A stretch of DNA of 64,000 bases from Janibacter sp. Soil728. Lineage in GTDB: Bacteria > Actinomycetota > Actinomycetes > Actinomycetales > Dermatophilaceae. Position 1 is the first letter of the stretch, and each line of letters begins with the position of its first letter. Positions 11,986 through 46,051 of this stretch are shown piece after piece. The notes beneath the pieces were generated by a model that saw only the letters and a list, made by a program, of their open reading frames with translations, was not told where the DNA came from and did no database searches. Location of the stretch: assembly GCF_001428305.1 (NCBI RefSeq), contig NZ_LMRZ01000004.1, forward strand, positions 87,879 through 151,878, in the 5' to 3' direction. A program made the position numbers and the translations under genes.

Positions 11986-12010
11986 CCGGTTGCCGGCCGT
12001 CGTAGAGGTC

Positions 12011-12115
12011 GGCCCGGAAGGATGGGTCCGCGCGGGCCGAAGTCCTTGGTCATCGTCCGAGCCAGGTGTCGTTCTCGACTTCGGCTCGAGTCGCGCGAAC
12101 CCACCCTTCCCGGCC
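12011..12115 (+). repeat. Dispersed hairpin element, copy A (conserved core with complementary arms)
   Basis: Copy A of an element also found at 45923-46013 on the other strand. The 55-base core, 12037-12091, is 46/55 identical to copy B. Within it CCGAAGTC (12037-12044) pairs with GACTTCGG (12077-12084). Outside it, 12011-12034 pairs with 12092-12115 at about 21 of 24 positions; these arms are unrelated in sequence to those of copy B. It lies 26 bases downstream of the hemL stop, in the same direction. Function unknown: structured 3'-UTR RNA, termination or processing signal, or a mobile hairpin. Confidence 0.8.
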
Positions 12116-12161
12116 TTCCCCTTCGTCCCTCAGGTGACCCAGCCCGGCGTCGAACTGCGGG

Positions 12162-45889: not shown

Positions 45890-45922
45890 CGTCTTTGCGG
45901 GCGGGCGAGGGCGGGCCCGCGA

Positions 45923-46013
45923 CAGGAGATGTCGGCGCCACTCAAGCCGAAGTCGAGAACGAGAACGCACCCGGACGACGACGAAGGACTTCGGCCGGCG
46001 CCGACGTGTCCTG
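45923..46013 (-). repeat. Dispersed hairpin element, copy B
   Basis: Copy B of the element at 12011-12115, on the opposite strand. Read leftward, the 55-base core (45994 to 45940) carries CCGAAGTC and GACTTCGG with the same 32-base interval and the same flanks, GG before and CTTGAGT after (CTCGAGT in copy A). Outer arms pair here too, GTCGGCGCC (45931-45939) with GGCGCCGAC (45997-46005), extended by CAGGA with TCCTG, but share no sequence with the arms of copy A. It lies 39 bases past the stop of the leftward CGNR gene. Confidence 0.8.
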
Positions 46014-46051
46014 CCGGGGGGTCGCAGAGGGGTCCGCGGGCGCGGGGACGC

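What the first reader, a model, noticed from the sequence alone, without database searches (positions are those of the whole stretch)
12011..12115. A repeated hairpin element with a conserved core and co-varying arms
Two copies (12011-12115, plus; 45923-46013, minus) share a 55-base core at 46/55 identity. The core has the pair CCGAAGTC/GACTTCGG, exactly 32 bases apart in both, preceded by GG and followed by CTyGAGT. The arms directly outside are unrelated between copies, yet each is self-complementary (about 21 of 24 pairs in A; GTCGGCGCC/GGCGCCGAC plus CAGGA/TCCTG in B). Arms that change in sequence but keep pairing are the hallmark of selected structure. Both copies lie 26-39 bases past a stop codon (hemL; the CGNR gene), in the same direction as that gene. 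A 3'-UTR RNA motif or a mobile hairpin would fit.
Basis: seen in the sequence. Interest (0 to 1): 0.85.

Follow-up and report, generated by a model that had tools for sequence, protein, structure and literature searches.

The report
Janibacter strand-specific repeated hairpin family
The two odd hairpins in this window belong to a family of folding DNA repeats about 120 bases long, seen so far only in the bacterial genus Janibacter, whose folded shape on one particular strand appears to be kept by selection, although what recognises it and what it does are still unknown.

Summary
Both copies are as described (46/55 core identity, 32-base spacing) and belong to a large family. A covariance model of the opposite strand matches 15 of 16 Janibacter genomes, 5-43 matches each; of 396 genomes of the order three match, all Janibacter (strict filter).
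I examined 175 copies at 64 site groups. Stems vary but keep pairing (covariation score 0.430; slid controls at most 0.152).
The strand whose fold is preserved is the OTHER one: in the outer stem G·T outnumber A·C 211:46 there, and 36:12 among in-place changes in 44 ortholog pairs, against the local substitution bias. Ends are sharp, without target duplication, promoter or T-tract. Copies sit mostly 3' of genes, in either orientation at ortholog sites. No Y1 (RAYT) transposase was found in the genus (0/16).
Best reading: a REP-class mobile hairpin acting as a folded single strand, mobiliser unknown; structured RNA is the main rival. In passing: CGAAGGGGG is 42-133-fold over-represented genus-wide, like a DNA-uptake sequence.

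The parts
12003..12119 (-).
   Evidence: R2 match 87.5 bits; 36 similar places in own genome
12015..12033 (.). Copy A outer stem, side next to hemL (pairs with 12093-12112)
   Evidence: Alignment to R2
12034..12035 (-). Copy A internal loop, short side (CC on the - strand)
   Evidence: Alignment to R2
12036..12044 (.). Copy A inner stem GCCGAAGTC (+ strand), pairs with 12077-12085
   Evidence: Sequence and alignment to R2
12045..12076 (.). Copy A apical loop, 32 nt
   Evidence: Sequence
12077..12085 (.). Copy A inner stem, other side (GACTTCGGC on +)
   Evidence: Sequence and alignment to R2
12086..12092 (-). Copy A internal loop, long side (GACTCGA on the - strand; one of the 6 of 175 copies without TCA)
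12093..12112 (.). Copy A outer stem, side away from hemL
   Evidence: Alignment to R2
45913..46028 (+).
   Evidence: R2 match 86.8 bits
45920..45938 (.). Copy B outer stem, side next to the ribose-phosphate pyrophosphokinase gene (pairs with 45998-46016)
   Evidence: Alignment to R2
45939..45945 (+). Copy B internal loop, long side CACTCAA
   Evidence: Alignment to R2
45946..45954 (.). Copy B inner stem GCCGAAGTC (+ strand), pairs with 45987-45995
   Evidence: Alignment to R2
45987..45995 (.). Copy B inner stem, other side
   Evidence: Alignment to R2
45996..45997 (+). Copy B internal loop, short side CG
   Evidence: Alignment to R2
45998..46016 (.). Copy B outer stem, side next to the CGNR gene
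   Evidence: Alignment to R2

Best explanation
SHOWN BY COMPUTATION: a dispersed family, detected only in Janibacter, of discrete elements of about 118 nt, each a long hairpin of two stems separated by an asymmetric internal loop (mostly 7-8 nt ending in TCA plus one base, against mostly 2-4 nt such as AGC, GG, CCA, CCAA or TTA). INFERRED: it is a REP-class non-autonomous mobile hairpin. It spreads and turns over through a folded single strand that an unknown trans-acting factor recognises by the internal loop and the stem ends, as TnpA-REP recognises bulged REPs or integron integrases recognise folded attC. It settles or is tolerated mainly just 3' of genes and between convergent genes. Because changes that disrupt the strand-specific fold are rarer than tolerated ones after insertion, settled copies probably keep some job for that strand (structure, binding site, or 3'-end hairpin).
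For: Dispersed copies with sharp ends and unrelated flanks (64 site representatives); 175 copies at 64 site groups; covariation 0.430 against at most 0.152 for slid controls; outer-stem G·T:A·C 211:46 on the preserved strand, 167:47 the same way in a model-free, symmetrically scored alignment of 114 copies; in-place outer-stem changes 36 to G·T, 12 to A·C in 44 ortholog pairs; substitution rate 0.053 paired, 0.102 unpaired; local transition bias runs the other way; asymmetry in each gene context and in both replication orientations, which fits an element-borne property; ortholog sites occupied in opposite orientation (108 of 274 cross-species pairs), one near-identical whole-unit reversal between sister species (L087/L124: flanks 92%, elements 88% identical); presence and absence at the same site between species; placement 3' of genes as reported for REPs (PMC3733652 abstract).
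Against: No Y1 transposase in 16 of 16 genomes and no other mobiliser identified or searched for; no target duplication; no clean empty site found; in-place selection on the fold is more than a purely selfish element needs; reversed and distant same-site pairs are only modestly more alike than unrelated copies, so inversion and replacement are not told apart; a folded single strand may equally be RNA. The wobble asymmetry falls short of significance (17:9, p 0.17) when mismatches are collapsed to 3-mer contexts, and over all 33 modelled pairs, inner stem included, it is 235:154; in-place inner-stem changes are 5:4.
Confidence: 0.45

Rival explanations
1. Structured RNA: the preserved strand is transcribed (from the convergent neighbour or by wider transcription) and the hairpin works as RNA, e.g. 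a protein-binding, mRNA-stabilising or RNA-end-forming element with the internal loop as recognition site.
For: Covariation, strand-specific G·T tolerance, in-place conservation of stems; a gene read in the preserved strand's direction ends next to the element in 119 of 171 copies.
Against: Asymmetry is present also where no adjacent gene is read in that direction (28:11 and 20:5); co-directional copies are 20 in and 33 against that direction; no promoter-like signal within 120 nt (TANNNT twice in 64 sites); no Rfam match above the gathering score.
Confidence: 0.33
2. Bidirectional intrinsic terminator hairpin between convergent genes, without further recognition.
For: 99 of 175 copies lie between convergent genes, including A and B; strong hairpins.
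Against: At the prs end B's neighbour has its own hairpin between gene and element (read by eye).
Confidence: 0.1
3. Dead MITE-like palindromes whose arms are kept matched by palindrome correction or gene conversion, without selection.
For: Palindromes can be corrected by template switching (recalled, no call); family sharing of arms; an apparent chimera (L141).
Against: Correction has no reason to prefer G·T on one strand against the substitution bias.
Confidence: 0.07
4. Uptake-word hairpin: the stems are inverted pairs of a genus-wide DNA-uptake-like word (CGAAGGGGG) placed at gene ends, like the paired DUS at Neisseria terminators.
For: The word is 42-133-fold commoner than its reversed control in 16 of 16 Janibacter genomes and not enriched to that degree in 23 genomes of 23 other genera. 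31 of 64 site representatives carry CGAAGG/CCTTCG in both arms.
Against: 31 of 64 site representatives have it in neither arm, nor do A and B (sequences). It does not explain the internal loop, inner stem or strand asymmetry.
Confidence: 0.05

Closest known systems
REP / BIME elements with TnpA-REP (RAYT), GTAG-tagged
   Same: Short dispersed palindromes 3' of genes and between convergent genes (PMC3733652, abstract and passages); a bulge in the stem and one folded strand recognised (PMC8266576, passages).
   Different: About 118 nt instead of 20-40; two stems with a 7-8/2-4-nt internal loop; no Y1 transposase in the genus; no GTAG tag seen in the consensus ends.
CGTC-tagged REPs
   Same: Palindromic, no dedicated transposase known (PMC3733652).
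   Different: Reported from five phyla that do not include Actinobacteria (passage); 4-5-nt loops; the CGTC in our stem end (reverse of GACG) is paired, not an unpaired tag.
Integron attC sites
   Same: Function through a folded strand with extrahelical bases (passage in PMC8266576).
   Different: No integrase searched for; copies are dispersed singly, not in a cassette array; consensus boxes of attC were not tested.
MITEs
   Same: Short non-coding, inverted-repeat, multi-copy.
   Different: No target-site duplication, no autonomous partner found (one pair of inverted copies encloses a metabolic-type gene).
DUS inverted pairs at terminators (Neisseriaceae)
   Same: Inverted copies of an over-represented word forming stem-loops at gene ends (PMC3630211, passages).
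   Different: Half of the site representatives lack the word in the stem; extra conserved internal loop.

Membership tests
REP with RAYT | Y1 (IS200/IS605-like) transposase in the genome | tested here: not met
   PF01797: 0 of 16 Janibacter genomes; the same search rings in 5 of 14 control genomes
REP with RAYT | Unpaired GTAG at one end | tested here: not met
   Column composition at both ends of 64 site representatives shows RGCGGRCGAAGGG and CCCTTCGNCMGC, no GTAG
REP class in the wide sense | Dispersed palindrome, mostly 3' of genes / convergent | tested here: met
REP class in the wide sense | Strand-specific folded single strand | tested here: met
   Indirectly, by G·T:A·C in the outer stem 211:46, 36:12 in place; 3-mer collapse p 0.17
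REP class in the wide sense | Actual mobility | tested here: inconclusive
   Dispersal, turnover and orientation changes, but no clean empty site
CGTC-tagged REP | Unpaired CGTC at one end, 20-40 nt palindrome | tested here: not met
   The GACG/CGTC of the ends belongs to the modelled outer stem; element about 118 nt
MITE | Target-site duplication | tested here: not met
   Direct repeats at the ends of 64 representatives no longer than in shuffled pairings
Intrinsic terminator | T-tract after the hairpin | tested here: not met
   AT content of the flanks 0.26-0.32 in 10-nt bins on both sides
Rfam family | Match at or above the gathering score | tested here: not met
   Window: only two tRNAs. 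Five element loci at E<=1: two microRNA matches on the elements, far below gathering (29.3 of 150 and 25.9 of 83 bits)
Structured RNA motif (new) | Significant covariation in the stems | tested here: met
   with a conservative home-made tree-aware null only 4 of 33 modelled pairs reach E<0.05
Structured RNA motif (new) | Transcription of the folding strand | not testable with these tools
   No RNA-seq available; no promoter-like signal
Integron attC | attC boxes and an integron integrase | not tested

The most novel reading that the evidence does not exclude
A new class of strand-specific folded element, RNA or single-stranded DNA, read by an unknown factor through its TCA internal loop and maintained at gene 3' ends across a genus; its stems often embed CGAAGGGGG, itself possibly the first DNA-uptake-type self-recognition word in an actinobacterium.
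Probability: 0.2. Interest if true: 0.85.

Novelty: new variant of a known kind. Interest (0 to 1): 0.62.

Why it matters
GTAG REP palindromes are explained by RAYT transposases. Here is a family with strong structural covariation and in-place, strand-specific conservation in a genus where no RAYT was found, so it points to either an undescribed single-strand recognition system or an undescribed RNA. Counting G·T against A·C changes in ortholog pairs is a simple test for which strand of a palindromic repeat is functional. The companion word CGAAGGGGG, if it is an uptake sequence, would make sequence-specific transformation in Actinobacteria directly testable.

Tried and rejected
RAYT mobilisation: no PF01797 in 16 genomes. 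Known RNA. Phage or plasmid origin: no match to copy A in phage or plasmid records, no viral contig with the core pattern. Terminator with T-tract and own promoter. Target-site duplication. Autonomous transposon between two inverted copies (L106): a metabolic-type gene, judged by eye. Mutational asymmetry as cause of the G·T excess: loops and flanks show the opposite bias (I do not use the Fisher test printed there, which compares unlike counts). Clean empty sites: sought at three sites; species lacking the element have other sequence there, often other hairpins. The uptake-like word as KOPS or Chi: no replication-strand bias, 96:94 in the fetched loci of five genomes.

Results against my reading: the wobble asymmetry loses significance at 3-mer collapse (17:9, p 0.17). 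Over all modelled pairs it is 235:154, because many copies have a shorter inner stem than the model; in-place inner-stem changes are 5:4. Only 69 of 166 same-orientation and 25 of 108 reversed same-site pairs are more alike than 95% of unrelated copies, so the first in-place count (60 pairs) mixes in replacements and was redone on 44 pairs with element identity at least 0.80. That redo takes its pairs from an alignment fitted to R2; the model-free count agrees in direction. Rows dropped: one search used 114 of 130 R1 copies (the rest lacked a recognisable core or full flank); one search kept 175 of 195 aligned matches (second matches on the same site); one search used 169 of 175 by length and 152 after a 92% identity filter. 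The out-group searches scored few candidates per genome (19, 8). One match outside the genus (G094, E 7.2e-4) was not examined. The 175 copies are those in the loci I fetched, not all matches, whose list was cut at the best places.

Full report
CHECK. The finding is exact: core identity 46/55, spacing 32, distances to stop codons 26 and 39. Each strand of each copy folds more stably than all 200 dinucleotide shuffles. At gathering scores Rfam gives only two tRNAs in the window.

A FAMILY. Copy A finds 36 places in its own genome at E<=10, 12 at E<0.01, itself included, and copies in relatives. An exact core pattern over a collection of 84,980 species genomes hits 16 stretches, all Janibacter (J. 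limosus, indicus, anophelis, hoylei, terrae and a MAG; the window's own genome may be left out there). A model built from 39 copies (R1) matches 14 of 16 Janibacter genomes; in 186 genomes of the family it matches those 14 and one of the 170 others, weakly (G094, E 7.2e-4). Reading sites that R1 missed or scored low showed diverged relatives with other inner stems. A second model of 30 diverse copies, built on the opposite strand (R2), matches 15 of 16 Janibacter genomes with 5-43 matches (both strands of one site can count twice). Of 396 order genomes three match, all Janibacter (only 8 candidates scored per genome, so a weak negative).

ANATOMY. In 175 non-redundant copies from the loci I fetched the opposite strand reads: outer stem of 19 modelled pairs; long internal-loop side, mostly 7-8 nt (ACATCAA 31, GACTCAG 22, AGCATCAA 21, GAATCAA 18, GACTCAT 16 and others; TCA in 169 of 175); inner stem of about 9-14 pairs; apical loop; inner stem; short loop side, mostly 2-4 nt (AGC 42, GG 39, CCAA 27, CCA 23, TTA 13 and others); outer stem. 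Homology starts and stops at the stem base; the flanks of 64 site representatives show no run of conserved columns, no promoter-like signal and no T-tract, and no target duplication. Six copies (L089, L128, L150, L166, L167, L168) carry another palindrome inside the apical-loop region, and L141 has a 5' and a 3' arm of two different types.

COVARIATION. On a structure-blind MAFFT alignment of 30 copies 86.6% of cells pair and the covariation score is 0.430; sliding one side gives at most 0.152, and 0 of 500 shuffles reach it. With a home-made tree-aware null 4 of 7,503 column pairs are significant, all four among the 33 modelled pairs. On 152 copies 4 of 6,441 are significant, three in the stem and one between the two sides of the internal loop. 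The tree comes from the same alignment, which makes the null conservative; most modelled pairs do not reach significance.

WHICH STRAND. In a palindrome one transition gives G·T in one strand's hairpin and A·C in the other's, so counting them tells which fold is tolerated. With R2 the outer stem of 175 copies has 211 G·T against 46 A·C, unique contexts 65:20, p 1e-6; over both stems 235:154. Earlier context collapsing on R1 copies gave 54:22 (p 3e-4) and, at 3-mer level, 17:9 (p 0.17). In 44 independent in-place ortholog pairs with element identity at least 0.80, single changes from Watson-Crick were 41 to G·T and 16 to A·C over both stems (p 0.0013): 36:12 in the outer stem (p 0.0007) and 5:4 in the inner; 31 gave other mismatches and 11 pairs changed on both sides to another Watson-Crick pair. 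Paired sites changed at 0.053, unpaired at 0.102. On the preserved strand loops and flanks show more A/G than C/T differences, the opposite bias. The asymmetry is there in each gene context (124:27, 36:3, 28:11, 20:5) and both replication orientations (57:13, 41:8).

PLACE. In the preserved strand's frame 99 of 175 copies lie between convergent genes, 20 and 33 between co-directional genes (read with and against that strand), 19 between divergent genes, 3 inside a predicted ORF and 1 is unclassified (home-made gene finder). Weighted by site group convergent sites are 30.1 of 64; in the window 11 of 64 neighbouring gene pairs are convergent. The 20:33 split is not what sense transcription of the preserved strand would predict.

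TURNOVER. Flank comparison puts the 175 copies into 64 site groups, 20 of them with three or more genomes. Cross-species pairs with both flanks matched are in the same orientation 166 times and reversed 108 times. Behind hemL, read in 15 species (the sixteenth contig ends before the site), the element lies in hemL direction in G000, G012, G006, G011 and G005, reversed in G007 and G003, and in both orientations in G004; G012 has a second, reversed copy. I see none in the other seven. At the prs and L082 sites, species lacking it show short gaps, other sequence or other hairpins. Reversed pairs are only modestly more alike than unrelated copies (bin means 0.68-0.76 against 0.675), so replacement is likely for many, but L087/L124 is a whole unit reversed between close species (elements 88%, flanks 92% identical).

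MECHANISM. No Y1 transposase was found in the genus, so this is not a RAYT REP by membership, although it works like one in design: dispersed 3' palindromes, a bulged stem, one strand that matters (PMC3733652: abstract and passages; PMC8266576: passages). I favour a REP-class mobile hairpin read as a folded single strand and then retained with a role. The step from 'one strand's fold is preserved' to 'single-stranded DNA substrate' is inference; structured RNA is the close rival.

LITERATURE. Searches for Janibacter with palindromic repeats, REP/RAYT with actinobacteria, convergent-gene hairpins, intergenic repeats and MITEs in actinobacteria and structured RNA in Micrococcales listed nothing that by title or abstract start describes this family; I saw listings, and the library holds only open-licence papers.

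IN PASSING. CGAAGGGGG occurs 797-1,860 times in each of 16 Janibacter genomes, about equally on both strands, against 14-34 for the reversed word; 23 genomes of 23 other genera have 13-67. In the window it occurs 26 times against 1.4 expected by an order-2 Markov model, 21 of them in predicted genes, and in the fetched loci of five complete genomes there is no replication-strand bias (96:94). This is the profile of DNA uptake sequences, which a passage of PMC3630211 calls unique to Neisseria and Pasteurellaceae. Searches listed no actinobacterial case by title or abstract start; I also saw passages of PMC6370729. Competence genes were not searched for.

Noticed in passing
genus-wide; window e.g. 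1475, 1505, 6477, 9150, 27481, 27498, 38356, 46104, 58013: CGAAGGGGG (extended G-R-CGAAGGGG-R) is 42-133-fold commoner than its reversed control in 16 of 16 Janibacter genomes (797-1,860 copies), equal on both strands, mostly in genes in the window, without replication-strand bias: a DNA-uptake-sequence-like profile in an actinobacterium.
   Followed up: partly
window 12119-12127 (-): One GACGAAGGG abuts copy A just outside its modelled stem; the word occurs 17 times in the window against 0.76 in shuffles.
   Followed up: no
L089, L128, L150, L166, L167, L168 (elements near 2000 in each): Another palindromic repeat of the type CCTGAGGAG..GCGCAGC..TCTCGAAGGG sits inside the apical-loop region of six copies, as if inserted there; the same repeat is also seen in flanks.
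   Followed up: no
L141:1981-2097: A copy with a 5' arm of one type and a 3' arm of another, an apparent recombinant.
   Followed up: no
L298-L311 intergenic sites; L210 (G001); L200 (G009): The same convergent intergenic sites carry other hairpin or tandem-repeat families in other species, e.g. CGTTGGTGTCACC..GGTGACACCAACG and TTCGCAACTGCTTAGGCTCTTGCGAA.
   Followed up: no
L131:2393-2507: A SAM-IV riboswitch (106.9 bits) lies about 250 nt from an element in G009.
   Followed up: no
G094:C30:31512-31624: The single weak R1 match outside Janibacter in the family search (E 7.2e-4).
   Followed up: no
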